The notes below the pieces were generated by a model that did no database searches, was not told the DNA's origin, and was given only the letters and a program-made list of their open reading frames with translations. From Frigoriglobus tundricola (GTDB lineage Bacteria > Planctomycetota > Planctomycetia > Gemmatales > Gemmataceae): a DNA stretch of 64,000 nt. Positions within the stretch are counted from its first letter, which is position 1; every line of letters starts with the position of its first letter. The translations under genes and the position numbers were made by a program. Of this stretch, positions 8,093-29,460 are shown piece after piece. The stretch spans positions 1,674,001 to 1,738,000 of the forward strand of contig NZ_CP053452.2 of assembly GCF_013128195.2 (NCBI RefSeq), written 5' to 3'.

Positions 8093-9082
8093 TCATCCCA
8101 CCCGTAACCGCTCGCCCAACCTCTTCAGCCCTTCCTCAACCGTCACCGTCGGTTCGTAGCCCAGGTCGCGGCGCGCGGCCGAGATGTCGTACCAGTGCGA
8201 CGTGGAGAGCTGGCTCGCGACGAACCGCGTCATCGGCGGTTCGCCCGGCAGCGGGAGCAGCCAGTACACGTATTCGAGGACGCGCCCGGCGAGTTTCGCT
8301 TTCCACGCCGACACGCGCCTCGTGACGGGGGGCGCGCCGGCTTCCGCGAGAATGCGGTCGAGGAACGGCCACAATTCGACCGGCTCGCCGTTGGAGATGA
8401 AGTACGCCTTGCCCGCGGGCGCGGTGCCGATGTCGAGCCGGTCGGCCGCATCCAGGTGCGCCTGCGCGGCGTTGTCGACGTACGTGACATCGACCTTCAC
8501 CGGCCGGGAGCCGACCCGCCGGAGCTTGCCCTTGCGGGCGCTGTCGATGATGCGCGGAACCAAATGCGGGTCGCCCGGACCGAAGATCAGGTGCGGGCGG
8601 AGCGAGACGGTCGCGAGGTCCGGGCCGTTGGCGGCGAGCACGGCCTTTTCGGCCTTCGCCTTCGTCTCCGAATACGCCGCCTCGAAGTGCGCCGGGTACG
8701 GCAGCGCCTCGTTCGCGCCCTCGACGTCCTTGCCGGCGTGGACGACGCTCGGCGTGGACGTGTACACCAGCCGCCGGACGCCGTGCTTTTTGCACGCGGC
8801 AACGACGCTTAGTGTGCCGGTCACGTTCGTGTCGAAGAAGGCGGAGTACCGGCCCCACACGCCGGCCTTCGCCGCCACGTGGAACACGACGTCGCACCCG
8901 CTCACGGCCCGTTCGACGTCGGTGAGTTGCGCGAGGTCGCCGAGGGTCTGCTCGACCCCGAATTCGTCCAGCCAGGGGTACCGCGAGCGGGTGAACGAGC
9001 GCACGGAGTCGCCCCGCTGACGGAGCAGCCGGACGACCGCCCCGCCGAGGAACCCGCCGCCGCCGGTCACCAGCGCCTTCAC
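8093..9082 (-). CDS. oleD: OleD, NAD(P)H-dependent 2-alkyl-3-ketoacid reductase
   Basis: 329 residues of the extended short-chain dehydrogenase (3-beta-HSD/epimerase-like) family. The nucleotide-binding GGGGFLGGAV lies at residues 7-16 and the catalytic YSETK at 137-141, with Ser in VYTSTPS at 107-113. In the Ole pathway this enzyme reduces the beta-keto acid made by OleA to a beta-hydroxy acid. The start is GTG at 9080-9082, inside a GTGA overlap with the oleC stop codon, so translation is coupled. It is the last gene of the locus. Family membership alone would allow an NAD-dependent epimerase, but the position directly after oleC makes OleD the secure call. Confidence 0.9.
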   Translation of the reverse strand: MKALVTGGGGFLGGAVVRLLRQRGDSVRSFTRSRYPWLDEFGVEQTLGDLAQLTDVERAVSGCDVVFHVAAKAGVWGRYSAFFDTNVTGTLSVVAACKKHGVRRLVYTSTPSVVHAGKDVEGANEALPYPAHFEAAYSETKAKAEKAVLAANGPDLATVSLRPHLIFGPGDPHLVPRIIDSARKGKLRRVGSRPVKVDVTYVDNAAQAHLDAADRLDIGTAPAGKAYFISNGEPVELWPFLDRILAEAGAPPVTRRVSAWKAKLAGRVLEYVYWLLPLPGEPPMTRFVASQLSTSHWYDISAARRDLGYEPTVTVEEGLKRLGERLRVG

Positions 9083-10920
9083 GCTTCAACCTCCGGGGTC
9101 CACTTCGGGCCGAGTTGCTCGTCCGCCCACACGGCCAGCTTCTCGCGGAAGATCTTCGAGTTGTGCCGCACGTCCACGGGAAACTTGGGGTGTTCGAGGA
9201 ACGTGGTGATGCCGCGCGTCTGGTTCCCGCGCCGGCCGGTCTCGCGCAAGCGGGGTTCAAGGGCCGAGAACCGCCCGCTCTTCGCCCGCGGTGTAATCGG
9301 GCCATCGAACTCAACGCAGATCACCGGATGCATCACGCCGCTTCGCCGAACGCCCACAAGGGCCGTTCGTGCTACTCCGGGCACCGTGTTGAAGATCGGT
9401 TCGACCATGTCCGTGAACAGTGTGCCGTGCGGGGTGACGACGCGGTGCGACTTCCGGCCGCAGAACCAGAGCCGCCCGCGGTCGTCAAGATACCCCACAT
9501 CACCCATGCGGTGGTACACATCACCTGTGATTGGATCGTGAATCTTTGCGAGTTTGGTCGCGTCGGGCCGGTTGTAGTACTGCCGCGTGACGACCGGCCC
9601 GCGAACGACGAACTCACCGACCTCGCCCGGGGGGGCGAGCAACGAATCGGCCCATTCCGCGATCGGTTCGTCGCTGATTCGTATGACGCGCACCTCCACA
9701 CCCCCGACGGGCCGCCCGACGCACACGCCCCTCCCCTGCTCGGTGAGGAACCGCGTTTCGGCGAGGATCTCGCGGCTGCCGATGTTCGCAACGGGGAGCG
9801 CTTCGGTCGCGCCATACGGCGTGAACACCTCCACGCCGTCGGGAAGGAGCCGAACGAACCGTTCGATTGAGGCCGCGGAAGCCGCGGCGCCCGCGGAGAT
9901 GACGCGGCGGAGGGTGGAAAGCGGACCTCCCCCCCCGGCCCCCCTCCCTGAAGGGAAGGGGGTGACGGCGCGCGATGCCCCACCCGATTCCGCAGGGGCA
10001 ACGGAGTTCCGAAGGTCTTCCCCCCCCTTCCCTTTAGGGAGGGGGGATGGGGGGGTAGGTTCTTCTGCCATCTCCCCCAACCGCCGGATCACCGCCGGCG
10101 AGCCGAACAGGTTCGTCACCCCGAACTGGCGGATCTGTGCCACGGCCTTCCGCGGGTCGATCCGCGCCGGCCGGCTCGCGTCCATGTCCGGGATCACGCA
10201 CGTCATGCCCAGCGCCGGCCCGAACAGCGCGAACAACGGGAACGTGCAGAGGTCGATCTCGCCCGGAGCAATGCCGTAGGTCGATTTCAGCAACTCCACC
10301 TGGGCGGCGAAGATGCCGTGCGTGTACACAACGCCCTTCGCGGGGCCCGTGCTGCCGCTCGTGAATAGGACCGCGGCCGACTCGTCCGCGGTCGGTTCGG
10401 GGATCGGGTACGCGCCCCGGCCGCGGCCGGCGGCCCGCAGCCGCGCGAGCGAGGTGTCGCAGGCGAACCGCCACCGGCCGACGTTCACCGTCGTGCGCAC
10501 CGTCCGCTTCGCCCAGCCGAGCACGCGGCGCGCGGCGTGGGCCTTGGCGATGCCGACGAACGCGTCCGGACCCGCCTCCGCGAGACACGTACCGAGGTTC
10601 CTCACCCCCATACCGGGATCGATCAGCACCGGCACCGCGCCGACCTTGAACAGCGCGAAGGTGAGCGCGAAGAAGTCCGGCGACGGGGGCACCATGAGCG
10701 CCGTTCGGGTCCCGCGCCCGATCCCGGCCGCGTGGAGCCCGTGGGCGATGGCGTCGGCGTCGGCGTTCAGTTCGGCGAAGGTGATCGCGCGGTGGCCGGT
10801 GGGGCCGTCGGGGCTCACGCGCCCGCGGGGGGCGTGAACCGCCACCTGGGCCGGGTGCGCGGCCGCCATCCGCGCGAGGTGCGAAGCGACGTTGAGGGAA
10901 GGCACGACGCTCCCCCTCAC
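9079..10920 (-). CDS. oleC: OleC, beta-lactone synthetase (AMP-forming ligase fold)
   Basis: 613 residues of the ANL acyl-adenylate superfamily. The P-loop VLFTSGSTGPAKGVVYTH lies near residues 183-200, the YGATE motif follows (FTPYGATEALPV), and MGDVGYLDDRGRLWFCGRK carries the Asp of the adenylation signature. OleC uses ATP to close the beta-hydroxy acid to a beta-lactone. An in-frame insert of about 47 residues, starting at EEPTPPSPLPKGKGG and rich in Pro, Gly and Ser, interrupts the domain and coincides with a palindromic DNA element (9926-10066). The start is GTG at 10918-10920, overlapping the HU-type gene's TGA. The insert lies where I expect a surface loop, so function may be kept. Confidence 0.9.
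   Translation of the reverse strand: MRGSVVPSLNVASHLARMAAAHPAQVAVHAPRGRVSPDGPTGHRAITFAELNADADAIAHGLHAAGIGRGTRTALMVPPSPDFFALTFALFKVGAVPVLIDPGMGVRNLGTCLAEAGPDAFVGIAKAHAARRVLGWAKRTVRTTVNVGRWRFACDTSLARLRAAGRGRGAYPIPEPTADESAAVLFTSGSTGPAKGVVYTHGIFAAQVELLKSTYGIAPGEIDLCTFPLFALFGPALGMTCVIPDMDASRPARIDPRKAVAQIRQFGVTNLFGSPAVIRRLGEMAEEPTPPSPLPKGKGGEDLRNSVAPAESGGASRAVTPFPSGRGAGGGGPLSTLRRVISAGAAASAASIERFVRLLPDGVEVFTPYGATEALPVANIGSREILAETRFLTEQGRGVCVGRPVGGVEVRVIRISDEPIAEWADSLLAPPGEVGEFVVRGPVVTRQYYNRPDATKLAKIHDPITGDVYHRMGDVGYLDDRGRLWFCGRKSHRVVTPHGTLFTDMVEPIFNTVPGVARTALVGVRRSGVMHPVICVEFDGPITPRAKSGRFSALEPRLRETGRRGNQTRGITTFLEHPKFPVDVRHNSKIFREKLAVWADEQLGPKWTPEVEA
9926..10066. repeat. In-frame palindromic mini-element, copy A (inside oleC)
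   Basis: The edges carry C-rich and G-rich arms: CCCCTCCCTGAAGGGAAGGGGG on the left is echoed inverted at 10022-10050, and the right end reads GGGGGTAGGTTCTTCT. The right end matches those of copies B (14736-14920), C (16138-16319) and D (25892-25984). It stays open in the oleC frame. Confidence 0.65.
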
Positions 10921-11189
10921 GCTCGGCCCGGCGCGTCGGGAAGTTGTTCGGCTCGCCGCTTCAACGCGTTGGCCGGCTTGAACTTCACGGCTCGTTTTGC
11001 GGGAACGTCGAGCCGGGCGCCCGTCCGCGGATTCCGTGCGATGCGAGCCTTTCGCTCGAACACCTCGAACGCACCGAACCCGTCGATCTCTACCCGCTTC
11101 TGCGTCATCAGTACTTCAGCGACCGTATCGAAGACCTTCCTCGCCGCGTCTTCGGTGCCGAGCGCCTTGCTCAGTTCGGGTGTGGTCAT
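10917..11189 (-). CDS. HU/IHF-family DNA-binding protein inside the ole operon
   Basis: 90 residues from the ATG at 11187-11189. An upstream in-frame start would add 60 residues that are a shadow of oleB. The C-terminal half shows the HU core: VEIDGFGAFEVFERKAR, then ARNPRTGARLDVPAKRAVKF (the DNA-contacting arm with the conserved RNPxTG) and FKPANALKRR. HU proteins bind and bend DNA as dimers. The ATG overlaps the oleB stop (ATGA), and the TGA overlaps the oleC GTG start (GTGA), so the gene is locked in frame-coupled translation between two lipid enzymes. It could regulate or compact the locus DNA, or be a chance passenger. No role for HU in hydrocarbon synthesis is known to me. Confidence 0.9.
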   Translation of the reverse strand: MTTPELSKALGTEDAARKVFDTVAEVLMTQKRVEIDGFGAFEVFERKARIARNPRTGARLDVPAKRAVKFKPANALKRRAEQLPDAPGRA

Positions 11190-12166
11190 GGCGCGTCCTG
11201 AATTGGGTGCCGCTGCAAAAACTCCCACACGCGCATGATGGCGAGTTCGCCGGCGTCGTCCAGAAGGTAGTGGCCGCAGTCCGGCCAGGTGTGAACCTCG
11301 GCGTGGGGGAAGTGCCGCTTCCACTCCTCGAGGAAGTGGCCGTCGAACACGAAGTCCTTCATCCCCCACAGCAGGAGCGTCGGCGTGGTGCGGAACCGGT
11401 CCAGAGCCGCCGCGGTGCCGCTGACGATGTCGAACCCGTCGTCACCCGGCTTCAGCGGGATCGTCTGCACGAACTTCAGCACTGCGACGCGGTGGGCCGG
11501 GGTGTCATACGGGGCGAGGTACGCCGCCCTCACCTCGGCCGGGAGCGGCTTGCGGGTCACGCACCACTTCGCGGCGTATTCGCAGAACGCGTTGCGCCGG
11601 GTGATGAGCCACGCCCCGAGCCGCGTGTTGCGGCCGAGCCACAGCGACCGCGGGAACCGCTTGCCGGGCGGCAGCGGGAACGCGCCGGTGTTGCTCGCGA
11701 CGATGCGCTTGATGCGGTCGGGGTGCCGGGCCGCGAAGCCCATGCCGATCATCCCGCCCCAGTCGTGCAGGACGAGCGTGAGGTCCTTGGTCAGCCCGCG
11801 CTCTTCGAGGAGCCATTCGAGGTCGTCGATGCGGTGCTTCAGCGAGTAGTCGTACTCACTCGGCGACGGCTTGTCCGAGAGGCCGCAGCCGATGTGATCG
11901 GGCACGATGCAGCGGTACGACTCGCGGAGCGCGAGGACCAGGTTGCGGTAGTAGAAGCTCCACGTCGGGTTGCCGTGCAGCATCACGACGGGGTCGCCCC
12001 GGCCCTCGTCCAGGTAGCTCATGCGGAGCCCGCGCCGCGCCGCGACCCGCGGCGTGAACGGGTACAGGTCCGGCGCGGGGTTCGGAAACGGTGCCGCTTC
12101 GTCGGCGGCCGGGAGGCGGGTGGTGCGAAGGGGCGGAGGCGCGTCGGAGGCCGGGGTGTTGCTCAT
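11186..12166 (-). CDS. oleB: OleB, beta-lactone decarboxylase (haloalkane dehalogenase fold)
   Basis: 326 residues starting MSNTPASDAPPP; a longer frame reaches 12325 but its first 53 residues are translated repeat DNA. Alpha/beta hydrolase fold: oxyanion motif HGNPTWS (residues 65-70), nucleophile elbow HDWGG with Asp135, acid Asp271 (GMKDF) and base His299 (DCGHY). An Asp nucleophile followed by Trp is the haloalkane dehalogenase-like signature that OleB shares. OleB removes CO2 from the cis-beta-lactone to give the cis-olefin. In many bacteria oleB is fused to oleC; here they are separate, with the HU-type gene between them. The stop codon overlaps the ATG of that gene. Confidence 0.88.
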   Translation of the reverse strand: MSNTPASDAPPPLRTTRLPAADEAAPFPNPAPDLYPFTPRVAARRGLRMSYLDEGRGDPVVMLHGNPTWSFYYRNLVLALRESYRCIVPDHIGCGLSDKPSPSEYDYSLKHRIDDLEWLLEERGLTKDLTLVLHDWGGMIGMGFAARHPDRIKRIVASNTGAFPLPPGKRFPRSLWLGRNTRLGAWLITRRNAFCEYAAKWCVTRKPLPAEVRAAYLAPYDTPAHRVAVLKFVQTIPLKPGDDGFDIVSGTAAALDRFRTTPTLLLWGMKDFVFDGHFLEEWKRHFPHAEVHTWPDCGHYLLDDAGELAIMRVWEFLQRHPIQDAP

Positions 12167-12221
12167 GGAGATTCGTTCGTCCGCTCGCGTCTGCCGGTTA
12201 ACAGCGATCTTAACAGACCCA

Positions 12222-12266: not shown

Positions 12267-12335
12267 AGAGCCATCCGCGCCCAACCGACTTCGTTGAATC
12301 TGCTGTTACGGTCGCGGTTCACCAAAAATACAGGT

Positions 12336-13493
12336 TCACCACTCCAGGCCGAGCATCAGGCAGTTCAGCCCGCTGCCGATGCCGAGGAAGCCCACGCGGT
12401 CGCCCGGCTGGAGGAACTCGCGTTCCTCCGCGATGGCCGCGGTGATGGGCAGCGACACCGTGCCGACGTTGCCCAGGTACTCGAACGTGCTGAACTCTTT
12501 TTCCCGCGGCACGCCGATCGCTTTCAGCACCGCGTCCCGGTGGCCGGCACCGACCTGGTGGCAGATCACCTTGTCGAGCTGGTCCGTGCGCCAGCCGAAC
12601 TTGGTGAGAAACTTCTGCCAGGTGCGGTTGCCGAGTTCGACACCGTACTTGAGCACCTCGCCGGCGTGCGTCTCCATGAAGGGGATCATCACGTGCCGCA
12701 GGCCGAGATCGACGCCCTTCTGAACCAGCCCGGTGGCGTTATCGACGCCCTTCTGCACCAGCCCCGCGGCGTTGTGGCCGAGGACGCGCTCCACCGTGCC
12801 GACCGCCGCCGGCAGGATGGACTGGAGCCCCCACCGGCACAGCGTGTTGTACTGCGGGGCGTTCTGGGTGACGCCGCCGAGCAGCTTCCGCCGCTTCCCG
12901 CGGGACAGCTCCTCGCTCACCACCAGCACCGCCACGGCGCCCGAACCGCCGGTCAGCGTCGCCACGCTCTCGCGGAACAGTTCGACCGACTTCGTCCGCA
13001 CCATGCGGTCGATGACGTTCTCGTTGATCTCGCGGGCGGTCTCGGCGGACACCACTAGGCCGGCCTTGGCCTGCCCGAGTTCGATCTTGTTCGCGATCTC
13101 GACGATGCCGTTGAGCACGCCGAGGCAGGCGTTCGACAGGTCGAAGACGGCCGCGTTCGGGTTGATGTTCAGCTCGTGGGCGACGGCGCACGCCGTGGCC
13201 GGCTCGAAGTTCTCGCGGCACACGCCGGCGTAGATGAGCACGTCGATGTCGGCGGCCGACATGTCGGCGGCGGCGAGCGCCTTTTTCGCGGCCGCCGCGG
13301 CGCCGAGCGAGAGCCGGTAGCCCGGCTCCCACCACCGCCGCTCGTTGATGCCGGTGAGCAGTTCCAGTTGCCCCGGCGCCATCTTGAGCGCCTGGTACAC
13401 GGGCGCGAGGCGCGCCTCCAGTTCGGCGGTGGACACCACCACCGGCGGGAGTTCGTACCCGATCGCTTCGAGGTGGACGCGGTTGTAGTTCAT
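12336..13493 (-). CDS. oleA: OleA, thiolase-fold head-to-head acyl condensing enzyme
   Basis: 385 residues from the ATG at 13491-13493 (MNYNRVHLEAIGYELPP); the 50 residues upstream in frame are repeat-derived. KAS III-like thiolase fold with catalytic Cys123 (DLSNACLGVLNG), His312 (CHQVGAGH) and Asn342 (GNVGTVSLP). OleA joins two fatty acyl thioesters by a decarboxylation-free Claisen condensation, giving a 2-alkyl-3-keto acid. The protein is longer than typical OleA (about 340-350 residues); extra length sits near 240-300 and contains a short duplicated motif (GLVQKGVDNATGLVQKGVD). A FabH-like role is less likely because oleBCD follow directly. The 3' end is 169 bases before the oleB start. 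Confidence 0.9.
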   Translation of the reverse strand: MNYNRVHLEAIGYELPPVVVSTAELEARLAPVYQALKMAPGQLELLTGINERRWWEPGYRLSLGAAAAAKKALAAADMSAADIDVLIYAGVCRENFEPATACAVAHELNINPNAAVFDLSNACLGVLNGIVEIANKIELGQAKAGLVVSAETAREINENVIDRMVRTKSVELFRESVATLTGGSGAVAVLVVSEELSRGKRRKLLGGVTQNAPQYNTLCRWGLQSILPAAVGTVERVLGHNAAGLVQKGVDNATGLVQKGVDLGLRHVMIPFMETHAGEVLKYGVELGNRTWQKFLTKFGWRTDQLDKVICHQVGAGHRDAVLKAIGVPREKEFSTFEYLGNVGTVSLPITAAIAEEREFLQPGDRVGFLGIGSGLNCLMLGLEW

Positions 13494-13665: not shown

Positions 13666-16600
13666 TCACTCTAGGGAAAAGTCGATCATCTGGTAGATGA
13701 CACGGCCGTCCACGGTGAGGAACCCGTTCGCGGTGAGGCGCCGATTATGGTCATCGGCCGCGACGATTTCCAGTACGACCGTCACCTCGCGGTCGGTGGG
13801 GAGCACCTGCCCGCGGTACACCCAACTGTGCGGGCGGTTCACGGCGACCGTTTGCCACGGGTTCCCGTCTTCGCCCCAGCGCCGCCACGCGGCGTACTTC
13901 AGGAGCTGCAAGAACGACTCCAGACCGAGCGAGCCGGGCCACACCGGGTCCTGGTAGAAGTGGGCCTTGAAGAACCAGAACCCGGGGTCCACCGCGATCG
14001 TTCCGACCACGAGCCCCAGCCCCTTCGAGCCGCCGTCCGGGACGTACGCGGTGACGCGGTCCACCATGCGCATCATCGGCGCGGGGAACGGGGCGGTATG
14101 CGGGAGCACGTCGGTCTGCGCCCGAATCCGCTCTTGCTCGTTGGGCCAGGGCACTTTGGCGTCGCGGATGCCGATCTGGTTCGCCAGCGCCGGTTTCGTG
14201 AAGAACCCGAAATACGTCGTCCCCTTGTACACGTCGCCCGCACTGTCTCTCACCAGCATGTCGTAATGCTGGATGATCATGCCGGCGGAATTGGACACGC
14301 TCGTCATTTTCACGGTGGTCGTCAGCGTGCCCGTGGCGGGCGTAACGGGCCGGAACTGCGTCGCCTTCCCCCCGAGGTTGCGGAAACTCAGATCCTCCGT
14401 GCTCGTGAGGGCCGATCCGCAGTACGCGGCGAGCCAGCCGCACGGCTGGAGGGCTATTTCCAACAGGACCGCGAACGGCATGTTCTCGCACCGGTTCGCA
14501 CCGAAGTACCACGCATCCGAGGGCACCGCGTACTGCGCGTCGCACGCGGCGCCGGCCTTCAGCACGAACGGCTCGCCGGTGACCGCGGTGATGCAGTCGA
14601 GGAACTGGAACGGCGGGCCGGGCAGCCGCGCGATGACCCGCCCCGAATCGAAGATGCGGTACGGTTCGCCGAACGCCTCCGACGGGTTGCCGTTGGAGTA
14701 CGCCATGATGCGCGCGGAGTCGTAGAGGGGGCGCGAAGAAGAACCCACCCCCAACCCCTCGGTTCGCTCCCCGGCCCTGTCAGCGGAGCTTCTCGCGGGC
14801 CGAGGGAAGGGAGGGGAGCCAGACCTTCGGAAGCTCGGAGCATTCGGAGAGTCGGAGGAGGCGTTTCGCGCGTTCACCCCGCTCCCTTCAGGGAGCGGGG
14901 CCGGGGGGGTAGGTTCTTCCCCACTTCGCGCCCACACGGCCTCCAACCGCTCGCGCGACAGGCCCGACATCCGCAGGCTCATGTTGGTGATTTCGACGAT
15001 CGGCTTCCCGTCGGCGTACATGAGCGCGTCGGCGAGGCAGTACGGTTCTGGGCGGTAGCCGAGTTCCTTCACCGTCACCTCGTAGGTGACGGTCCTCGTC
15101 GTCGGCAGCACCTGGCCGCGGCACTTGAGCCGGCTGTTGACGCCCGGCACCGGTTCGTGAGCGACCTCGTACCGCTCGCCCACCCAGCCCAGCCGCATCA
15201 ACAACACGCGGAGCGTGTGCAGGCAGCACTCGTACATGAGCGTACCGGGCATCACCTGATCGTCCACGAAGTGACAGGTGATGAACCAGTCGTCCGGGTG
15301 GATGTCGAACTCGGCCCGCACGAAGCCGATGCCGAACCGCCCGCCCCGCGGTTCGATGAGCGACACGCGGTCCACGAGTCGCAGCATCCCGCCGGGGATT
15401 GTGGCCGGGTGCTGCACGTTCGCCTGAGCAAAATCGGGACCGAATGCCGTAACGAGGTCGCCCGCGCGGAGCGCGTCCACCTGGGCCGGCGCGAGCGCGC
15501 AATCGGATTGGGGCACGAGGTCGCGCCAGTCGGCGGGTTTCTTACCGGGCAGCCGCTTGCGGTCGAGCGCGGTCTGCACGATCCCCTTGCCCGCGGCGAG
15601 CGCTTCCGCGGTGAAGAACCCCGCCACGCCGTTCCGCATGGTGATCAGCGGCTCGCCGTTCACCGTCCCGTCGAACCAGAAGTGGAACAGCCACGCCCCG
15701 GCCTGCTGAACGAACCGGTCGATGTGGATGTCGTACACCACCGTCTCGCCGACCGTCGGCAGCCCGCGGTGGAACGAGACGACCGCGTCGAGGAGGCGGT
15801 ACACGGCGAGGCCGCGGGTCTGGAAGTCGATGCCCAGGTAGCCAGAGAGGAACAGGTCGGCCTGACCGCTTTCGACGCAGATGGCGGTGGGGATGCGGCC
15901 GGCTTCGAGGTACCAGCGGTCCGCGTGGACCGTGTGTTCGGTGACGACCCGGCCGCTCGTCATCGACCGCGGCTCGCCCTCGATGAGGGTGATGCGGTCC
16001 ACGAGTTGGAGCGGGCCGTCGGGCAGGCGGACACGGGTCGGGAACGTGTCCACTTCCGCGAACAGCGGCCCGAGCGCGTCGGCGATTTTGCCCGCGGCGA
16101 ACTCGCAGCACTGTTCGTAGGTGAGAGCGCGAGGTGGAGAAGAACCCACCCCCCGGCCCCCTCCCGGAAGGGAGGGGGTGAACGCGCGCAAAGCCTCCTC
16201 GGACCCGCCGGAGGCGCGGGCGTTCCGTAGGTCTTGCTCCCCTCCCTTCCCTCGGCCCGCGAGAAGCTCCGCTGACAGGGCCGGGGAGCGAACCGAGGGG
16301 CTGGGGGTGGGGTCTTCGTCTGTCGCCCCATTCCCTGAAGGAAGAAGCGGGAACGCCGCTCCGCCGCCCCGCACCCACGCTTCGAGGAGCGCGGTCTGGA
16401 ACCGCAGCACGCCGGCGGCAGATTCCATCAGCCGACTGTTGACGCGGAGGAACGCTTCCTGTGCCTGCGTGTTCAGGACTTGCACGTTGGCCGCCGATTC
16501 GATGAGCGGGGCGATCATGGTGGAAAGCGCCACGCCGCTCATACTCACAGCGGCACCGGTCAACTGTGTATCCGTTTCGACGAAGCCGGGCCGGGGCACT

Positions 16601-20702: not shown

Positions 20703-23700
20703 CTACTTAAGAGCGAGCTGGTTCTTGCGGAACGAGGCGTTGAGCGTCGGCTCCATGACGCACTCGTAGTCCTGCATCTGGGCGATCACCTGGCCGTCCG
20801 CGGCGAGGAAGTCGATATCGGCCCGCGCGAACCGGGCGTCGTCGCGGGTGACGCGGATCACCACCGTGACCGGGTCGGCCGGGAACCCCTTGCGGAACTG
20901 CCGGTACCGGCCCACGAAGCTCGGCAGCGAGCCCGTGTTGTGTTCGCCCTGCGTCCAGAGGATCATCATCTGGAACGCCGCGTCCAGCACGAGCGGGTCC
21001 GCGGTCCAGCCGGACCGGAGCGGCGCGTCGAACCAGTCGGCCGGCGGCGGGGCCGGGTGCGCGCTGCCGACGAACGCGCGCGGGGCGCGGCCGGCGATCT
21101 CAGCGATGCCGTGCAGGTCCGGGCCGTGGAACAGGAGCTCGCGGTACGCCTGGGGCACGGTGTACGGCACCGGCGTCACGGCCGGCGCCGCGTCGGCCGG
21201 CGGCGGCTTGGGCAGCGCCGGGGCGAGGACGATCTCCGCCCGCGAGTACACCACCTCGCGCCCGTCCTTCCTCCGCCCGCGCAGCTCCACCGGCACCACG
21301 AACGTCTTGTCCTGCTTCACCGCCTTACCGGCCAGGGCCCGGAGCGGCACCGCCGCGCCGGCCTCCACCTTCAGCCCGGCCGTCACCCGCAGGTCGTTGA
21401 ACCCGATGAACTGGAGGCCCGGGTTCCCGTGCATGGCGGCGTGCGCGAGCCACTCCAGGTGCAGCGCCACCGGCAGCACGGCGAGCCCGTCGAGGACGTG
21501 CGACTTCAGCACCGGGTGCGAGGCCACGTCCACGGCGCGCTCGAACGCCTGCGTGAGATCGGCGGACGGGAGCGGACTCGGCGGGGACAGCACCGGGCCG
21601 GTCGGGGCCGCGGCGGGCACCGGCGCGATCCCGGAGCCGCCCGGGCCCCGGGCCGGCGGCTTCGCCAGCGCGGTCACCTCCACCGCGCGCCCGGCCGCGT
21701 TCAACTCCTGAATCAGGAACATCGCGCCGTCCTGGAGCGGGATGACGCCCACGCCCTCGGACTCGAACAGCTTCCGCAGGCCGGGCGTGACCATGCCGCC
21801 GTCCCACGGCCCCCAGTTGATCGCCACCACCCGCGCGCCCGGCCGGCGCCGCGCTTCAACCTGGGCGGTCTTGTTCAGCACCTCGTTGGCACAGGCGTAC
21901 GCGAGCTGGCCGACGCGCCCCAGCCGGGCGGTCGTGGAGCTGAACAGCACCAGCGCCTTCAGGTCCTCGTGGCCCAGCAGATCGAGGACCGTGCGGAGCC
22001 CGTCCACCTTGGTGGAGTACACGCGGTCGAACTGCTCGCCGGCCAGGTCCTCGATCCGCTTGTCGGCCAGCACGCCGGCCCCGTGAACGACGGCGGACAC
22101 CGGACCGTACTTGACGCGCACCTGGTGGAGCATGTCGGCCACGGCCCGGCCGTCGGTGATGTCCACCGGGAAGTACACCGCCTTCGCGCCGGCCTGCCGG
22201 ACGCGCTCCAGGGTGCGGCGGACCTCGCGCTGGGCGACCACTTTCTTGTACGCGTCCCCGACCGCCCGCGGCGCCGCGTCGCCGAGCGCGTCGGCGAGGG
22301 CCTTCTTGATGTCCGCCTCGGCCGTTAGACCGGCGAGGTACTCGGGCTCCGCCGCCGGGGTCGGGGTCCGGCCGGTGAGGATGAACGTTGAGCCGTACGT
22401 ATCGGCCAGCGCCACCACCACCTCGGCCGTGACCCCGCGGGCGCCGCCGGTGACGAGGACCACGTCCCGCGCGCCGAGGTTGATGAGCTGGGCGTTCGGT
22501 CGCCGCGCGGCACGGGCCAGTTCCAGCGAGCAGCGGTGCGTCGGGGCGATGCCGACTTCCGCCGGGCCGACCGACAGCACCTCTTCGACGACGGCGGTCG
22601 CCGCGGCGACCGGGTCGGTGAACGCGGCCGACAGGTCGATCGCCTTGCAGGCCACCTCCGGCCACTCCTGGCGCGCGGTCTTCGCGAGCCCGGCCAGCCC
22701 GCCGGCGGTCGGGTCGGCGTCCGCGGTCAGGTCGCCCAGGCCGAACGCGCCGTCCAACCGGGCGACGGTGGCGAACGCCGCGGCCCCGGCCCGACCGGCC
22801 GGGCGGAGCTTCGCCGCCGCCAGCTTCAACCAGTCGAACGCCCGCCGGTTCAGGCCGGAGTCCGGTCCGGGCTGGACCGGCGCCAGAAGCACCAGCCCCA
22901 CGAGCGGCCCGGCGGGGAGCTTCGTGCCGCTCGCGTCGCCCCAGCCCAGCACCTTCACGTTCAGCCCGCGGGCGGTCAACTGTTGGGCCGTCGCGGTGGT
23001 CAGCGGGTCGGCATCAGCCACCACCCAGAACTCGGCCCCGGCCGGCAACGGCACCTGCGCCCGCGGCGCACGCGGGTCCAGATCCACCACCTGGAGGGTG
23101 CTGCGGTCCACGGTTTCGGTACTGAACGGGCCGACCGGCAGCCGGACGGTTTCGGTCGGCTGCCGCGGGGCGGGCGCCGGAGCGCCGGCCCCCTTCCCCG
23201 GCTTCGTTGTTCCGTTCGCGACCGGTTCCCCCGCCGCTAACTTCCCCGACGTCTGAGTGGCCAGTTGCACCGTGTCCGGAGGGAGCGGCTCAACGGCGAT
23301 TTGCGGGGTAACGGGCTTGGTGGACAGGCTCTCGCCCGCGTCGAAGAGCGGAATCCGGGCGGTCGCGGGTGCGGCGGGTCCGGCGAGGAAGTCGGCCACG
23401 TCCTGGAGCGTGTGCAGCGTGCCCAGGTGCTCCGGCTTCACCACCGGCGCCTCGGGCAGCTTCTCCTGAAGCGCCGACAGGATCTCCACGCGCTTGATCG
23501 AGTCCACACCCAGGTCCGCGTCCAGGGACAGCGACAGGTCCAGGCTGTCCACCGGGTACCCCGTCTTCTCCGACACCACACCCAGAAGGACCGCGGACAC
23601 GTCCGCGGAGCCGTTCCCGCCGCGGACCTGGAGCAGTTGCTCGTGGCTCACCGCCATCGTGCGGGCGAGCGCGTCCTCGTCGTCCTGCGCGGCCGCGGGT

Positions 23701-26700
23701 GCGGCGGGTCCGGCGAGGAAGTCGGCCACGTCCTGGAGCGTGTGCAGCGTGCCCAGGTGCTCCGGCTTCACCACCGGCGCCTCGGGCAGCTTCTCCTGAA
23801 GCGCCGACAGGATCTCCACGCGCTTGATCGAGTCCACACCCAGGTCCGCGTCCAGGGACAGCGACAGGTCCAGGCTGTCCACCGGGTACCCCGTCTTCTC
23901 CGACACCACGCCCAGAAGCGCCGTTGCGACCTGATCGCGGGCCGGCGCCTTCGCCACGGGAGCCGGGGCCGGCCGGGGTTGCGGCGCGGGGGCCGGCGGT
24001 ACGAGCTTGGTTGTCGGCAGCGCCGATGCGGGCAAAATGGTCGTCGCCGGCGGGCCCGACGACCGAGCCGGCGCCGCGGGGACGGGTGCCGGAGCCGGAA
24101 CTGGAGGCGGTGGTGCGAAAACCGGTGCCGGCGCGGGGGCGAAAGCGGCGACAGACGGGCGCGCCGCGGCGGGCAGTGCCGGCGCCGCACCGAGCCCGGT
24201 GAGCAGGAGCGTTTGTTGCTGATCGACGAGCGTCTGGAGCGTCCGCTGGGCCGACTCCTGGGAGTCGAGGAACTGCTTGTGCAGCGCCGCCGTCTGCTCC
24301 TGCATCCGCTGGAGCGCGGCCAGGCTCTGCTGGGTCATCGCGAGCGCCTGAGCGAGCGCGTTCGGGTCGGGTGTGGTGTGTGGCGAATCGGACATCGCGG
24401 CCCCCTTCGGCCGTGCGAGAATCGCGTGTGCGGGTGTTCCGGCCGGCTTGCCGTTGCCATTAGTCAGGGCGAGGTGTTGCGGGGCACGGGGCGGTCGTGC
24501 GGCGCGTGGCGTGACGGAGTTCGCTCCGCACACGCTCACCGTCAGGCCGGGCCTCCCAGCCGGGACCGCGGGCGGCCGGCAGCGGCTGCCCTTCTCCCAC
24601 TCGGTGAGCGCGATGGGGTGGCCTCCGGCGGCCAGACGCGCCAGTGCGTGCCCCAAATCTAGCACACCCGAACGCCTACCCCCAGACGCATCGAGAGCGA
24701 AGGCGTCAACCGCCGCCCCCGGCACGTCCGCCACAATCAGCTCAACCAGCCGCGTCAGCACCGCTCCGGGACCGACTTCCAGGAACGTGCGGACCCCGGC
24801 GTCGGCCATCGCCTTCACCTGTTCCACAAACGCGACCGGTTGCGCGAGCTGGTTGGCGAGCAGGTCCTTCGCCGCGCCCGCGTCGTCCGGATACTCGGCC
24901 GCGGTCGTGTTCGCGTAAACCGGCGAAGTTTTAGGGTGAACCCCGTTGGCGGCGGCCCCGGAAGTACCGTTCCGGCTGTTGAACGCCAGCCCGTCGAGCG
25001 CGGCGCGGAACGGCACCGCGGCGTCGGCAACGAGGGCGGAATGGAACGCGGCCGCGACCGGCAGCCGGGTGGCCTTCAGGCCGGCATCGGAGAGCAGCCG
25101 GCCGGCCCGCTCGATGTGGTCGGTGGGGCCTGAAAGGACCGTTTGCTTCGGCGCGTTGCGGTTCGCGACGACGACGTTCAGTTTTTCGCGGGCCATCGCG
25201 GCATCGATCTCCGATGGGGTGGCGAAGACGGCCAGCATGGTGCCGGGATCGCCGCTCCGCTGGGTCGCCATCAGTTGCCCGCGCACGCGGGAGAGGGTGA
25301 ACAGGTCGTGCGCACTCATACGACCAGCGGCGGCGAGCGCGACGAGTTCGCCGTAGCTGTGGCCGGCGAACGCGTCCGGCTTCAGCCCGAACCGTTCGGC
25401 CAGGGCGCGCCACGCCCCGAAGCTCACCGCGCCGATGGCCGGTTGCGCGTTCCGCGTGGCGCGGAGTGTGCGGTCGGCCTCATTTTTCCGCTCGGGGTCG
25501 AAAGTGGTCGGCGGGTAAATGCGGTCCGTCAGGCGGCTCGAATCGGTGTTCTCGTGTGTGAACTCAGCAACCGCGGCGTTCGCATCTGCGAGGGCGTCCA
25601 GCGCTTCGGGGAACAGACAGGCGACTTCGCGCAACATTCCGACGTACTGCGATCCCTGGCCGGGGAACAGCACCGCGAGTTTGCCCGCAGGGCCGCGGCC
25701 GAAATGCGCGCCGTCCGGAGTGTGCCACGCGGTCGCGTCCGGGTCGGCGGCGAGCGTGGCCCTGGCGTTGGCGAGCAGTTTCGGCAGGTCGGTCAGCGTG
25801 CGGTGCGCCGCAAAGGCGAGTCGGCACGCGGCGGACGGGTGGAACGCCGCGCGGGCCGTTTCCGCGGCGCGGGCGAAGGCCTCCCAGGTGGGAGAACCCA
25901 GCCCCCCACCCCCCCTCCCTGAAGGGAGGGGGGCTTCAAGCCCCCCTCCCTTCAGGGAGGGGGGGTGGGGGGCTGGGTCTTCTTGCGTCACCTGCACCAA
26001 CAGCCGATCGAGTTCCTGAATCAGCCCTTGCACCGTGTCGGCGCCGAGCGCGACGACCTCCACCGAGCCGTCCCAGTCCGGCTCGCTCTTCTCGGCGCGG
26101 TACTCTTCGAGCACCGCGTGGAAGTTGCTCCCGCCGAAACCGAACGCGGACAGGGCGGCGCGGCGCGGGTGCTCGCGCCGCGGGAGCCACGGCCGCATTT
26201 CGCCGTTCACGTAGAACGGCGAATCGGCCGCGAGCAGCGGATCGACCGGCCGCTTCACCTTGATCGTCGGCGGCAGCACCTTGGAGTACACCGCGAGCGC
26301 CGCCTTGATGAGCGACGCGGCCCCCGCCGCCGACTTCGTGTGCCCGATCTGCGACTTCACGGAGCCGATGGCGGCCCACGGGCGCGGCTTCGCGGTCGTG
26401 CCGGCGGTCGTGGTGTACACGTCGGTCAGGGCGGTGATCTCGACCGTGTCGCCGACCTTCGTGCCGGTACCGTGCGCCTCGACGAGTTCGATGGTGTCGG
26501 GGGTCACGCCCGCGAGGCGGTACGCGGCCAGCAGCGCCTTCTTCTGCCCGGCGGCGCTCGGCGCGTAGATCGCGTTGCCCTTACCGTCACTGGACGAGGC
26601 GACGCTCTTGAGGACCGCGTAAATCGTGTCGCCGGCGCGCTCGGCGTCCGCGAGGCGCTTCAGCACCACCACCCCCAGCCCCTCGCCGAGAATGGTGCCG

Positions 26701-27632
26701 TCCCCGTCGGCGTCGAACGGCTTCGCGTCGCCCGTCGGCGACAGCGCCGGGGTCTTGCTGAAGCACATGAACATGAAGATGTCGTTGAACGTGTCGCACC
26801 CGCCGGTCACCGCGACGTCGCAGCGCCCGGCTTGCAGCTCGAGCGCCGCGAGGTGAACGGCGCTGAGCGAACTGGCGCACGCGGCATCGACGACACAGTT
26901 GGTGCCGCCGAGGTCCAGCTTGTTGGCGATGCGCCCCGCGACCACGTTCCCGAGCAGGCCGGGGAAGCTGTTCTCCTGCCACGGGACGTAACTTTCGGCG
27001 ATGCGGGCGGCCGCGTCGTCCGCGAGTTCGTCCGGAATGCCGGCGTCGCGCATCGCCCGCTTCCACTTCGGGTGGCCGAGCCGCGCGCCGAGCGGAATCA
27101 CGAGTTCCAGGGTGCCCGTCACTCCGAGAATGACCGACACGCGGTCGCGATCCACGGTCTTGTCGGAGCGGGGGGCGTAAGCCCCCTGTGTACCGTTTGG
27201 CACAACTCCGTTGGGCACAACTCCGTCGGGCACAGGGGGCTTACGCCCCCCGCTCAGAATCACGCCCGCGTCCGTCAGCGCTTGCTTCGCCGCAACGAGG
27301 CCGAGCAGTTGGGTGGTGTCGGTGGCCTCGATGTCGCGCGGGGCGATGCCGAACTCGAGCGGGTTGAAATCGACCGCGGAGAGGAACCCGCCGCGGCGGG
27401 CGTAGGTCATGTCCGGCGCCTTGGGGTCGGCGTCGAAGTAGTCGTCCGGGTTCCAGTGCGTCGGCGGCACGTCGGTGATGCCGTCGGCGCCGTGCTTGAC
27501 GTTCGCCCAGAAGAACCCCGGCCCGGCCGCTTTCGGGAACAGGCAGCCGATGCCGACGATGGCCAGCGGTTCGAAGTCCGGTTCACGTTTCGCGTGCGAC
27601 GTTACGGCTTTTGCGTCTGCAATCGGTGTCAT
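20703..27632 (-). CDS. pfaA: PfaA-like multidomain PUFA synthase: KS-AT-ACP-ACP-KR-DH
   Basis: 2309 residues. Ketosynthase: Cys252 (DAACASSLSAVHL), EAHGTGT and KSQIGHTKSAAG. Acyltransferase: FPGQGSQYVGM and GHSYGE with Ser759. A Pro/Ala-rich linker precedes two acyl carrier domains with phosphopantetheine sites GVDSIKRVEIL at Ser1268 and Ser1378. The ketoreductase has VTGGARGVTAEVV and YACANEVLNK, and the C-terminal hotdog dehydratase starts near SHPVLKSHVLDG. This order matches PfaA of PUFA synthases, which elongate and reduce the chain; PfaA often has 4-9 ACPs, so two is few. The AT-KS region holds two in-frame palindromic DNA inserts (27166-27255 and 25892-25984). A PfaE-type phosphopantetheinyl transferase is needed but absent here. 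The pfaD gene lies upstream, separated by a palindrome. Confidence 0.92.
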   Translation of the reverse strand: MTPIADAKAVTSHAKREPDFEPLAIVGIGCLFPKAAGPGFFWANVKHGADGITDVPPTHWNPDDYFDADPKAPDMTYARRGGFLSAVDFNPLEFGIAPRDIEATDTTQLLGLVAAKQALTDAGVILSGGRKPPVPDGVVPNGVVPNGTQGAYAPRSDKTVDRDRVSVILGVTGTLELVIPLGARLGHPKWKRAMRDAGIPDELADDAAARIAESYVPWQENSFPGLLGNVVAGRIANKLDLGGTNCVVDAACASSLSAVHLAALELQAGRCDVAVTGGCDTFNDIFMFMCFSKTPALSPTGDAKPFDADGDGTILGEGLGVVVLKRLADAERAGDTIYAVLKSVASSSDGKGNAIYAPSAAGQKKALLAAYRLAGVTPDTIELVEAHGTGTKVGDTVEITALTDVYTTTAGTTAKPRPWAAIGSVKSQIGHTKSAAGAASLIKAALAVYSKVLPPTIKVKRPVDPLLAADSPFYVNGEMRPWLPRREHPRRAALSAFGFGGSNFHAVLEEYRAEKSEPDWDGSVEVVALGADTVQGLIQELDRLLVQVTQEDPAPHPPSLKGGGLEAPLPSGRGGGGLGSPTWEAFARAAETARAAFHPSAACRLAFAAHRTLTDLPKLLANARATLAADPDATAWHTPDGAHFGRGPAGKLAVLFPGQGSQYVGMLREVACLFPEALDALADANAAVAEFTHENTDSSRLTDRIYPPTTFDPERKNEADRTLRATRNAQPAIGAVSFGAWRALAERFGLKPDAFAGHSYGELVALAAAGRMSAHDLFTLSRVRGQLMATQRSGDPGTMLAVFATPSEIDAAMAREKLNVVVANRNAPKQTVLSGPTDHIERAGRLLSDAGLKATRLPVAAAFHSALVADAAVPFRAALDGLAFNSRNGTSGAAANGVHPKTSPVYANTTAAEYPDDAGAAKDLLANQLAQPVAFVEQVKAMADAGVRTFLEVGPGAVLTRLVELIVADVPGAAVDAFALDASGGRRSGVLDLGHALARLAAGGHPIALTEWEKGSRCRPPAVPAGRPGLTVSVCGANSVTPRAARPPRAPQHLALTNGNGKPAGTPAHAILARPKGAAMSDSPHTTPDPNALAQALAMTQQSLAALQRMQEQTAALHKQFLDSQESAQRTLQTLVDQQQTLLLTGLGAAPALPAAARPSVAAFAPAPAPVFAPPPPVPAPAPVPAAPARSSGPPATTILPASALPTTKLVPPAPAPQPRPAPAPVAKAPARDQVATALLGVVSEKTGYPVDSLDLSLSLDADLGVDSIKRVEILSALQEKLPEAPVVKPEHLGTLHTLQDVADFLAGPAAPAAAQDDEDALARTMAVSHEQLLQVRGGNGSADVSAVLLGVVSEKTGYPVDSLDLSLSLDADLGVDSIKRVEILSALQEKLPEAPVVKPEHLGTLHTLQDVADFLAGPAAPATARIPLFDAGESLSTKPVTPQIAVEPLPPDTVQLATQTSGKLAAGEPVANGTTKPGKGAGAPAPAPRQPTETVRLPVGPFSTETVDRSTLQVVDLDPRAPRAQVPLPAGAEFWVVADADPLTTATAQQLTARGLNVKVLGWGDASGTKLPAGPLVGLVLLAPVQPGPDSGLNRRAFDWLKLAAAKLRPAGRAGAAAFATVARLDGAFGLGDLTADADPTAGGLAGLAKTARQEWPEVACKAIDLSAAFTDPVAAATAVVEEVLSVGPAEVGIAPTHRCSLELARAARRPNAQLINLGARDVVLVTGGARGVTAEVVVALADTYGSTFILTGRTPTPAAEPEYLAGLTAEADIKKALADALGDAAPRAVGDAYKKVVAQREVRRTLERVRQAGAKAVYFPVDITDGRAVADMLHQVRVKYGPVSAVVHGAGVLADKRIEDLAGEQFDRVYSTKVDGLRTVLDLLGHEDLKALVLFSSTTARLGRVGQLAYACANEVLNKTAQVEARRRPGARVVAINWGPWDGGMVTPGLRKLFESEGVGVIPLQDGAMFLIQELNAAGRAVEVTALAKPPARGPGGSGIAPVPAAAPTGPVLSPPSPLPSADLTQAFERAVDVASHPVLKSHVLDGLAVLPVALHLEWLAHAAMHGNPGLQFIGFNDLRVTAGLKVEAGAAVPLRALAGKAVKQDKTFVVPVELRGRRKDGREVVYSRAEIVLAPALPKPPPADAAPAVTPVPYTVPQAYRELLFHGPDLHGIAEIAGRAPRAFVGSAHPAPPPADWFDAPLRSGWTADPLVLDAAFQMMILWTQGEHNTGSLPSFVGRYRQFRKGFPADPVTVVIRVTRDDARFARADIDFLAADGQVIAQMQDYECVMEPTLNASFRKNQLALK
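23364..23918 (-). repeat. Near-identical tandem ACP-coding repeat
   Basis: Segments 23364-23588 and 23694-23918 (225 bases each, period 330) differ at one visible base (23580 versus 23910). They encode the two carrier domains. The perfection at wobble positions points to recent duplication or gene conversion, and also means an assembler could have collapsed extra copies. Confidence 0.9.
25892..25984. repeat. In-frame palindromic mini-element, copy D (inside pfaA)
   Basis: An almost perfect palindrome of about 92 bases: left AGAACCCAGCCCCCCACC, right GGTGGGGGGCTGGGTCTTCT, with CTCCCTGAAGGGAGG blocks in both arms and a 7-base centre. It is translated as a Pro/Gly-rich loop (starting EDPAPHPPSLKGGG) between ketosynthase and acyltransferase. 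Ends match copies A-C. Confidence 0.8.
27166..27255. repeat. In-frame palindromic element of a second class, inside the pfaA ketosynthase
   Basis: Perfect 25-base inverted arms (27166-27190 and 27231-27255; core GGGGGGCGTAAGCCCCC) flank 40 bases holding short tandem CAACTCCG words. Total 90 bases, 30 codons, no stop. The encoded insert (GGRKPPVPDGVVPNG onward) sits in the N-terminal part of the ketosynthase. Confidence 0.85.
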
Positions 27633-27720
27633 CGTGGTGCTGTCTTCAAACGTGAAACGTTAGAGGCGAAACGAGGGGCTCAGCACAGAGCTGGCGCCTG
27701 CGAGGTCCCGAATTCTTACT

Positions 27721-27783
27721 TTGTGGCACAGGCTTTCCAGCCCGTGCTTCCAAGCCACACAGGCTGGAAAGCCTGTGCCACAA
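27721..27783. repeat. Long inverted repeat between pfaD and pfaA
   Basis: Perfect 22-base arms (27721-27742 and 27762-27783; core GGCACAGGCTTTCCAGCC) with a 19-base loop. It lies 89 bases upstream of the pfaA start and 31 bases downstream of the pfaD stop, so it would fold in the intercistronic mRNA. Confidence 0.8.
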
Positions 27784-27813
27784 ACCATTGGACGCACTCA
27801 ACCGGAGCGGGTA

Positions 27814-29460
27814 TCACGCCAGCCGCGCCGCGACCTCCTCCGCGGGCAGCGGGCGGAGCGGGAAGCACGCGTCCGGGAGGTTCACGCCCTGTTGCCGGAG
27901 CGCCTGGCGCCTCAGAACCACGCACGCACCGTACAGCAGGTTCAGCGCGACCCCGACCACCGTCCGGTTCTGGGGCTGTTCGAGGTGCGACCCCTTCGCC
28001 CATTCGTTGAACGCGCCCATCGCCGGGCCGCACCACACCTGGTAGTCCACCAGCCGCCCGGCCTCGCCCGCGTTCGCCCACCGGCTCGAGAGCCCCAGGT
28101 ACCAGCGGAACACGAGTGCCATCCGGTGCCGCGGGTCGGTCTCGGCCTTCGCGAGCTGTGCCGGCTCCCGCTTCGCCCAGAAGTCGCGGGTCAGCGCCCA
28201 GACCTCCTCGAAGGTGGCCCGGAACTGCGTCTTCTCAACCTGGACGCGCTCGGCCGCGGGTATCGCTTCCCAACTGGTGTACGATTTGTACAGGTCGTAC
28301 AGTTTTTGTGCCCGCATCGCGAACATGGTGCCGCGCTTGAGCACCTGCACCTTCACGCCCATTTCGAACATATCGGCCGCCGGCGCCATGATGACATCGG
28401 CCTGTCCGGCTTCCGCCAGCATCTTCCGCACGCCGTCCGAACTGCCGGACTCGACACACGCCTGATTCACGCTCCCCGTGACGACGTACGCCGCGCCCAT
28501 CGCGAACGCTCCCGCCACGGACGCCGGTGTCGCGATGCCGCCGGCCAACCCGACACGCGGCGGGGACGCGTACTTGAACTGGGCCTGGAGGCGATCACGG
28601 AGGGCGATGATCGTGGGCAGGAGGGTGATCGCGGGGCGGTTGTCCGTGTGGCCGCCGCTGTCGGCCTCGACCGTGACGTCGTCGGCGACCGGAAAGCGTG
28701 CGGCCATCGCGACTTGCTGGGGCGTAACGTGTCCGGCCGCGAGCAACTCCTTGACGATCCGCTCCGGCGGCGGACTGAGGAACTTCGTCGCGACTTCGGT
28801 CCGTGACACCTTCGCCACGACACGGTTGAGCGGCACCACCAGCCCGCCCACGCCGCCGCGGAAGCCGGCGATCCGGTACCGGACGATGGCCGGAGTGAGG
28901 TCGAGGTAGGCGCTGGCTTCGACGAGCGGCACGCCCTTCTTGAGCAACAGTTCGGCCGTCGCCATTTCGTGCGCCGGCTCGTTCGGGCTGTGGATCAGGT
29001 TCACGCAGTACGGGCCGTCGCCGACGCTCGCTTTCATCCGGTCGATGGCGGTGCCGATGCGTTCGAGCGACAGCCCGGCGGCGCCGTAGCTGCCGAACAT
29101 CCCGGCGCGGCTCATCGCCTCCGCGATCTCGACGGAGGCGATGCCGTTCGCCATCGCGCCGGTCATGTACGCGAAGCGCACGCCGTGGTCGTGCCGAAAC
29201 GCCGGGTCACCAAGCTGTTCCGCGGGCAGCGGCGGCAGGTACGCCGCGACCGGCCGCCCCTCCTTCGCGGCCGTTCCGAGCGTAACCGTACCGCCACGGG
29301 CGACCGCCAGACCGCCGTTATCGTGAACGACGACCACCGGTGCGCGGAGGTCACCAATAGCGGCCTGGAAGCCTTCGGGTGTGTCCGTGGGCTGTGGGCC
29401 GTTCGGGAGCCAATGTCCGAGCGGGGGCGGACTTCCGTCGGTTCCGGCCGGGTGAATCAT
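27814..29460 (-). CDS. pfaD: PfaD-type flavin enoyl reductase of PUFA/polyketide synthases
   Basis: 548 residues of the PfaD family (nitronate monooxygenase-like TIM barrel, FMN-dependent trans-acting enoyl-ACP reductase). Visible family segments: FAYMTGAMANGIASVEIAEA, GMFGSYGAAGLSLERI, VNLIHSPNEPAHE, EADSGGHTDNRP, RVGLAGGIATPASVAGAFAM and VTGSVNQACVESG. The C-terminal third (NRTVVGVALNLLYGACVVLR near the end) is the helical part special to PfaD. It is the first gene of the locus on the minus strand; the pfaA start is about 180 bases downstream. It should saturate chosen double bonds and so set the unsaturation pattern. The length agrees with PfaD proteins. Confidence 0.93.
   Translation of the reverse strand: MIHPAGTDGSPPPLGHWLPNGPQPTDTPEGFQAAIGDLRAPVVVVHDNGGLAVARGGTVTLGTAAKEGRPVAAYLPPLPAEQLGDPAFRHDHGVRFAYMTGAMANGIASVEIAEAMSRAGMFGSYGAAGLSLERIGTAIDRMKASVGDGPYCVNLIHSPNEPAHEMATAELLLKKGVPLVEASAYLDLTPAIVRYRIAGFRGGVGGLVVPLNRVVAKVSRTEVATKFLSPPPERIVKELLAAGHVTPQQVAMAARFPVADDVTVEADSGGHTDNRPAITLLPTIIALRDRLQAQFKYASPPRVGLAGGIATPASVAGAFAMGAAYVVTGSVNQACVESGSSDGVRKMLAEAGQADVIMAPAADMFEMGVKVQVLKRGTMFAMRAQKLYDLYKSYTSWEAIPAAERVQVEKTQFRATFEEVWALTRDFWAKREPAQLAKAETDPRHRMALVFRWYLGLSSRWANAGEAGRLVDYQVWCGPAMGAFNEWAKGSHLEQPQNRTVVGVALNLLYGACVVLRRQALRQQGVNLPDACFPLRPLPAEEVAARLA

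What the first reader, a model, noticed from the sequence alone, without database searches (positions are those of the whole stretch)
8093..29460. A PUFA-type synthase and a complete oleABCD pathway in one co-directional locus
The sequence shows pfaD, pfaA, a KS-CLF-AT-dehydratase synthase, oleA, oleB, an HU-type gene, oleC and oleD in a row on one strand. In marine Shewanella-type bacteria PUFA-derived chains and Ole enzymes make a polyunsaturated C31 hydrocarbon, but to my knowledge the genes lie apart. Linking them suggests a dedicated polyunsaturated hydrocarbon (or a new cyclic or ketone variant) in a Gemmata-type planctomycete. The fused acyltransferase and lone OleB support a lineage-specific pathway. 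The product is inference.
Basis: partly seen in the sequence, partly recalled or inferred. Interest (0 to 1): 0.88.

Follow-up and report, generated by a model that had tools for sequence, protein, structure and literature searches.

The report
Known polyunsaturated-hydrocarbon gene cluster in Gemmata
This stretch of a Gemmata-type planctomycete genome carries a gene cluster that very probably builds polyunsaturated fatty chains and joins two of them into a long oily hydrocarbon; the same kind of cluster is already described from Geobacter and others, so it is a good but ordinary example.

Summary
The gene row is real: pfaD, pfaA, pfaBC, oleA, oleB, an HU-like gene, oleC and oleD lie co-directionally on the minus strand. 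One correction: in this assembly pfaBC is two ORFs (18310-20619, 13666-18219); about 130 bases between them keep the conserved sequence only in a shifted frame, while 18 of 19 relatives have one open frame. That is a sequencing error or a lesion.

Shulse and Allen (2011) put Gemmata obscuriglobus in the 'Type I' pfa class, said ole genes are often linked to such clusters, and proposed that Type I feeds olefin synthesis. A 2016 review gives the same order for Geobacter bemidjiensis, which makes C31:9. pfaBC lies directly upstream of oleA in 67 of 80 OleA-selected loci, over Planctomycetota, Desulfuromonadales and Gammaproteobacteria. Of 95 family genomes, 72 have both oleA and pfaD; all 29 with both on one contig have them within 18 kb. 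OleA keeps its catalytic residues. Most likely product, inferred: hentriacontanonaene or a near relative. The ketone, cyclic and lineage-specific readings lack support.

The parts
27814..29460 (-). pfaD, trans-acting enoyl reductase of the synthase
   Evidence: TIGR02814 pfaD_fam 639 bits, cut-off 449; the only match in the genome at E up to 0.001
20703..27632 (-). pfaA, KS-AT(GHSYG)-ACP-ACP-KR-DH(PS-DH); 2309 aa
   Evidence: Pfam domains; KS site VEAHGTGT, AT GHSYG, two LGVDSIK ACP sites; repeat of 235 nt, copies 98% alike, spaced 330
18310..20619 (-). pfaBC, first ORF: KS and start of chain-length factor
   Evidence: ketoacyl-synt 252 bits and its C-terminal domain 113 bits; stop inside the CLF; the two ORFs are one open frame in 18 of 19 relatives
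13666..18219 (-). pfaBC, second ORF: end of CLF, AT (GLSLG), hot-dog dehydratases
   Evidence: FabA-like domain, two stretches, E 6.6e-77; PDB match to PfaBs 9ry8, E 3.7e-19, over residues 44-479; DH motifs HFVDDQVMPG and HFYQDPVWPG
12336..13493 (-). oleA, head-to-head condensing thiolase (likely ATG start 13493; the ORF extends to 13643)
   Evidence: NF006720 460 bits, cut-off 285; the 28 best PDB fold matches are all OleA-family chains of Xanthomonas; E97, C123, H312, N342 invariant in 61 of 61
11186..12166 (-). oleB, alpha/beta hydrolase (likely start 12166; ORF to 12325)
   Evidence: Abhydrolase_1 E 2.4e-31; best NCBIfam model haloalkane dehalogenase 165 bits, below its cut-off 241
10917..11189 (-). 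HU/IHF-like DNA-binding protein; its start overlaps the oleB stop by 4 bases
   Evidence: Bac_DNA_binding 70 bits; junction read; matched in 5 of 100 related loci, of which L043 and L067 are the same place
9079..10920 (-). oleC, AMP-dependent olefin beta-lactone synthetase, with an in-frame insert at about aa 287-330
   Evidence: NF006754 712 bits, cut-off 478; NF045786 olefin beta-lactone synthetase 652 bits, cut-off 900 not reached; the only match in the genome at E up to 1e-40
8093..9082 (-). oleD, 2-alkyl-3-oxoalkanoate reductase
   Evidence: NF042422 OleD 437 bits over nearly the whole length, cut-off 580 not reached

Best explanation
A Type I-like secondary-lipid cluster. The PfaA/PfaBC/PfaD synthase, switched on by a phosphopantetheinyl transferase encoded elsewhere (candidate about 146 kb from pfaD), builds a polyunsaturated acyl chain, probably about C16:4. 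OleA condenses two chains head to head to a beta-keto acid, OleD reduces it, OleC closes a beta-lactone and OleB splits out CO2 to leave a long polyene, most likely hentriacontanonaene (C31:9) or a near relative. Shown here: gene order, domains, OleA catalytic residues, conservation and parallel inheritance. From published work on relatives: C31:9, its dependence on Pfa, and the 16:4 precursor. The OleD-OleC-OleB order of steps is recalled knowledge of the pathway. Inferred: the product here, transcription as one unit, and any physiological role.
For: Domain and family matches. OleA fold and catalytic residues. Conserved order: 29 of 29 family genomes with both genes on one contig have oleA and pfaD 12.9-17.1 kb apart; pfaBC ends within 1.5 kb upstream of oleA in 67 of 80 OleA-selected loci, and 40 of 80 also hold oleB, oleC and oleD in the flank. 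OleA and PfaBC distances correlate, r 0.77, 0 of 1000 permutations reaching it, 60 of the 67 linked loci used. Geobacter bemidjiensis has the same order and makes C31:9 (PMC4882568); Type I was proposed to feed olefin synthesis (PMC3098273).
Against: No chemistry for this organism. pfaBC is broken in this assembly. OleC and OleD fall below the strict olefin-pathway cut-offs. Photobacterium profundum SS9 has adjacent pfa and ole yet made no detectable C31:9 (PMC6463001). The 2016 review argues that aerobic carriers would likely not need such products. Some family members have oleC apart from oleA, and G001 has oleA without a pfa gene in the 20 kb fetched. One promoter-like site on the minus strand, 13772-13744, just upstream of oleA (1 found, 0.4 expected), would allow separate expression.
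Confidence: 0.82

Rival explanations
1. The synthase makes a polyunsaturated fatty acid or lipid for the membrane, and OleABCD works mainly on ordinary fatty acids; the genes are only neighbours.
For: In Shewanella the Pfa synthase makes EPA as well as the OleA substrate (PMC6463001). G001 carries both gene sets on different contigs, with no pfa gene in the 20 kb fetched around oleA.
Against: Of 80 family genomes with either gene 72 have both, and 29 of 29 on one contig are linked; distances of OleA and PfaBC track each other.
Confidence: 0.1
2. The pathway is non-functional in this strain because pfaBC is truncated inside the chain-length factor (compatible with the best explanation for the cluster type).
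For: Stop at 18310 and frame excursion in the assembly.
Against: Two frame changes that cancel within about 130 bases of a stretch of about 75% GC look like sequencing errors; the other ORFs of the cluster are open.
Confidence: 0.15
3. The product is a ketone or beta-lactone rather than an olefin.
For: OleA expressed with the Pfa proteins gives a 31:8 ketone in E. coli (PMC6463001).
Against: oleB, oleC and oleD are all present beside oleA here.
Confidence: 0.05

Closest known systems
Geobacter bemidjiensis pfaDABC-oleABCD-pfaE tandem cluster (PMC4882568, passages seen)
   Same: Same gene set and order; producer of C31:9; Geobacter bemidjiensis is in Type I
   Different: Here no pfaE at the cluster end (the candidate PPTase is about 146 kb from pfaD), an HU-like gene sits between oleB and oleC, and the variable OleA segment is 56 residues against 18 in the nine Desulfuromonadales/Deltaproteobacteria loci measured
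Type I secondary-lipid synthase of Gemmata obscuriglobus and Deltaproteobacteria (Shulse and Allen 2011, PMC3098273, passages seen)
   Same: Gemmata-type host, pfaBC fusion, olefin role proposed
   Different: pfaBC split in this assembly; figures are not held, so domain order was compared by text only
Shewanella / Photobacterium pfa and ole operons (PMC6463001, passages seen)
   Same: Pfa-derived chains condensed by OleA; adjacent operons in P. profundum SS9
   Different: PfaB and PfaC separate and 4-6 ACPs in the marine Type A; here the fused PfaBC type and 2 ACPs

Membership tests
Type I pfa cluster (Shulse and Allen) | pfaD, pfaA and a pfaBC fusion | tested here: met
   the fusion is one frame in 18 of 19 relatives but split in this assembly
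Type I pfa cluster (Shulse and Allen) | KS tree placement in the Type I clade | not tested
   No KS tree with their reference sequences was built
Type I pfa cluster (Shulse and Allen) | PPTase with P1b motif (F/S)NxSH | tested here: inconclusive
   Of two PPTases in the genome the 293-aa one has FNVTH, Thr for Ser, read by eye; its partner is unproven
OleABCD olefin pathway | OleA with catalytic Cys, His, Asn and Glu | tested here: met
   E97, C123, H312, N342 invariant in 61 of 61; C143, E117, H285 are named in PDB titles, the Asn is recalled; positions matched through the alignment
OleABCD olefin pathway | OleC and OleD pass the strict olefin-pathway equivalog cut-offs | tested here: not met
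   652 of 900 and 437 of 580 bits; two of the models are named for Xanthomonas or Shewanella, so this weighs little against the function
OleABCD olefin pathway | OleB alpha/beta hydrolase in the cluster | tested here: met
OleABCD olefin pathway | Long-chain olefin produced | not testable with these tools
   Needs GC-MS

The most novel reading that the evidence does not exclude
The Gemmata-lineage version makes its own product or places it in its own cell site: OleA carries a lineage-specific segment next to the catalytic domain, here with two near-identical 11-residue units (NAAGLVQKGVD, NATGLVQKGVD), which could act as a lipid-surface or synthase-docking helix; together with the divergent AT (GLSLG instead of the GYSxG of marine PfaB) this could shift chain length or deposition.
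Probability: 0.1. Interest if true: 0.45.

Novelty: new member of a known kind. Interest (0 to 1): 0.2.

Why it matters
It shows that a cluster known from anaerobic Geobacter is common and stable in a planctomycete family. That makes cultured relatives such as Zavarzinella formosa and Limnoglobus roseus, which carry linked clusters, good places to look for C31:9-type hydrocarbons and to ask why they are kept. It does not open a new kind of pathway.

Tried and rejected
Ketone, beta-lactone or cyclic product: not favoured, since oleB, oleC and oleD are all present and no other enzyme gene lies in the row. 'Lineage-specific pathway': rejected by linked loci in Geobacteraceae, Desulfuromonadales and Gammaproteobacteria. 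A minus-strand gene at 4907-8092 downstream of oleD: rejected; it has no Pfam match, and the plus-strand ORF 5027-7981 is a PAS histidine kinase with receiver domain, so the cluster ends at oleD. A general role for the HU-like gene: not supported; it was matched in 5 of 100 loci, 4 distinct places, though some loci are too short to show the oleB-oleC gap. A diagnostic AT motif for hydrocarbon clusters: rejected, since Tyr, Leu, Gln, Asn, Lys and Val all occur at that site. Paper searches for C31:9 in planctomycetes gave no usable report; probably could not match 'C31:9' as printed. Recalled, confirmed by no call: that some planctomycete species descriptions list C31:9 among neutral lipids, and that Planctomyces maris was among tested olefin producers.

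Full report
What is there. On the minus strand between 29460 and 8093 lie, in order, pfaD, pfaA, pfaBC, oleA, oleB, an HU-like gene, oleC and oleD. The genome is in the same genus as G009, whose oleA contig has the length of that of Gemmata sp. IIL30. pfaD passes its TIGR02814 cut-off (639 against 449 bits). pfaA has KS, acyltransferase, two ACPs, KR and a PS-DH domain. The ACPs lie on a 235-nt repeat whose copies are 98% alike, so their number may have been altered in assembly; among 15 other loci scanned with the same motif, 10 show two, 4 show one, and one with gap Ns shows none. OleA passes the NF006720 cut-off. OleC and OleD match olefin-pathway models but stay below those models' strict cut-offs.

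A correction. pfaBC is not one ORF here. The KS-CLF part stops at 18310, and the CLF end-AT-DH part opens at 18219 in the same frame; about 130 bases between them keep the conserved CLF sequence only in another frame. In 18 of 19 relatives the region is one open frame; the nineteenth (L039) contains gap Ns. Local alignment with three relatives shows small length differences at both edges that cancel. Two cancelling sequencing errors in a stretch of about 75% GC are the simplest reading; a real lesion cannot be excluded.

Junctions. oleB/HU, HU/oleC and oleC/oleD overlap by four bases each. The gaps pfaD/pfaA, pfaA/pfaBC, pfaBC/oleA and oleA/oleB are about 80-180 bases with the starts chosen here, and by eye hold palindromes (sequence printed). 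In 7900-27000 the two minus-strand terminator-like sites lie inside pfaBC and none lies between genes (6 found on both strands, 9.6 expected by chance). The one promoter-like site, on the minus strand at 13772-13744, lies in the end of pfaBC upstream of oleA (0.4 expected), so a separate ole promoter is possible. 27000-29460 was not scanned. One transcript is plausible but unproven.

Conservation in the family. In 95 genomes all have some match to OleA at E up to 0.001, because other thiolases match weakly; I counted the 75 with a match of at least 100 bits (G046 on a 107-bit partial match). 77 have a pfaD match at E up to 0.001, 71 over the cut-off. 72 have both. In 29 of the 72 both lie on one contig, and in all 29 they are 12.9-17.1 kb apart. 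The other 43 have them on different contigs; many of these assemblies are fragmented, but G001 is a clear unlinked case, with no pfa gene in the 20 kb fetched around oleA. Of 20 stretches fetched, 19 have pfaBC next to oleA. G087, G051 and G053 lack oleC and oleD there, and G053 also lacks pfaA beside pfaBC; their oleC lies elsewhere.

Beyond the family. A scan of named genomes with an OleA alignment kept the best 80 of 572 confirmed places, so it is biased towards OleA most like the query, and it overlaps the family set. pfaBC ends within 1.5 kb upstream of oleA in 67; 4 contigs are too short to tell; 9 have no pfaBC there; 40 of the 80 hold pfaBC and oleB, oleC and oleD together. Linked loci include Zavarzinella formosa, Limnoglobus roseus, Aquisphaera insulae, Singulisphaera sp. 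GP187, and MAGs of Geobacteraceae, Desulfuromonadales and Gammaproteobacteria. Pairwise distances of OleA and PfaBC correlate (r 0.77, 60 of the 67 linked loci long enough to use, 0 of 1000 permutations reaching it). Shared species history alone can give such a correlation.

OleA. The AlphaFold2 model (mean pLDDT 74) matches Xanthomonas OleA best in the PDB. E97, C123, H312 and N342, which correspond to E117, C143, H285 and N315 of Xanthomonas OleA through the alignment, are invariant in 61 of 61 sequences. Between G222 and E279 lies a segment of 17-70 residues that varies by lineage; it is 56 here, mostly helical in the model, with low confidence at 252-271.

Acyltransferase. The AT of pfaBC has GLSLG. 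In marine PfaB the residue before the serine is Tyr, reported as not interchangeable with His or Leu (PMC12895367, passages seen). Of the 80 loci 64 gave an AT match: Tyr in 39, Leu in 11, others in 10, 4 unreadable. Of the 20 family stretches 18 gave one: Leu in 12, Tyr in 3, others in 3 (the sets overlap). So this site does not mark the hydrocarbon clusters as a class.

PPTase. The genome has two matches to the ACPS family. The 293-aa one lies at contig position 1849173, about 146 kb from pfaD, with FNVTH at the P1b motif (read by eye). It is a candidate activator only.

Literature, all seen as passages. [quoted passage not shown] The 2016 review (PMC4882568) states that G. bemidjiensis carries pfaD, A, B, C, oleA, B, C, D and pfaE in tandem and makes C31:9; it also argues that aerobic carriers would likely not need such products. 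PMC6463001 notes that pfa and ole can be clustered or apart, with adjacency in P. profundum SS9, which made no detectable hydrocarbon. A 2023 study (PMC10176705) reports olefin genes in Gemmataceae MAGs. I found no report of the hydrocarbon from a Gemmata culture in the searches made, which cover open-licence papers only.

Verdict. A real, conserved and probably functional hydrocarbon cluster of a known kind.

Noticed in passing
window 9901-10089 (oleC), 16120-16314 and 14704-14937 (pfaBC), 25893-25991 (pfaA): In-frame palindrome-flanked inserts (ends like GAAGAACCTACCCCCC ... GGTTCTTC) inside the enzyme genes, roughly 25-65 residues each; a similar insert sits in the CLF of relative L040. The 16-base end occurs 10 times in the genome against 0 for the reversed control; all 10 lie in some long open frame of either strand (weak evidence at this GC), and my search for a partner end succeeded in only 1 of 10. 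They resemble REP-like elements reported inside genes.
   Followed up: partly
window 12708-12773 (oleA): Two 33-nt repeats, 91% alike, encode 11-residue units in the variable OleA segment; related lineages have other lengths and units.
   Followed up: partly
window 23359-23923 (pfaA): Two ACP-region copies 98% alike over 235 nt, which suggests gene conversion or recent duplication.
   Followed up: no
window 10917-11189: HU/IHF-like gene overlapping oleB and oleC by 4 bases each, matched in 5 of 100 related loci, 4 distinct places.
   Followed up: partly
window 5027-7981 (+): Multi-PAS histidine kinase with receiver domain, convergent with oleD; the long antisense ORF 4907-8092 has no Pfam match.
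   Followed up: no
window about 27720-27785, 20630-20700 and 29590-29732: Palindromes in the pfaD/pfaA and pfaA/pfaBC gaps, read by eye, and a 38-nt direct repeat (82%) upstream of pfaD; not counted genome-wide.
   Followed up: no
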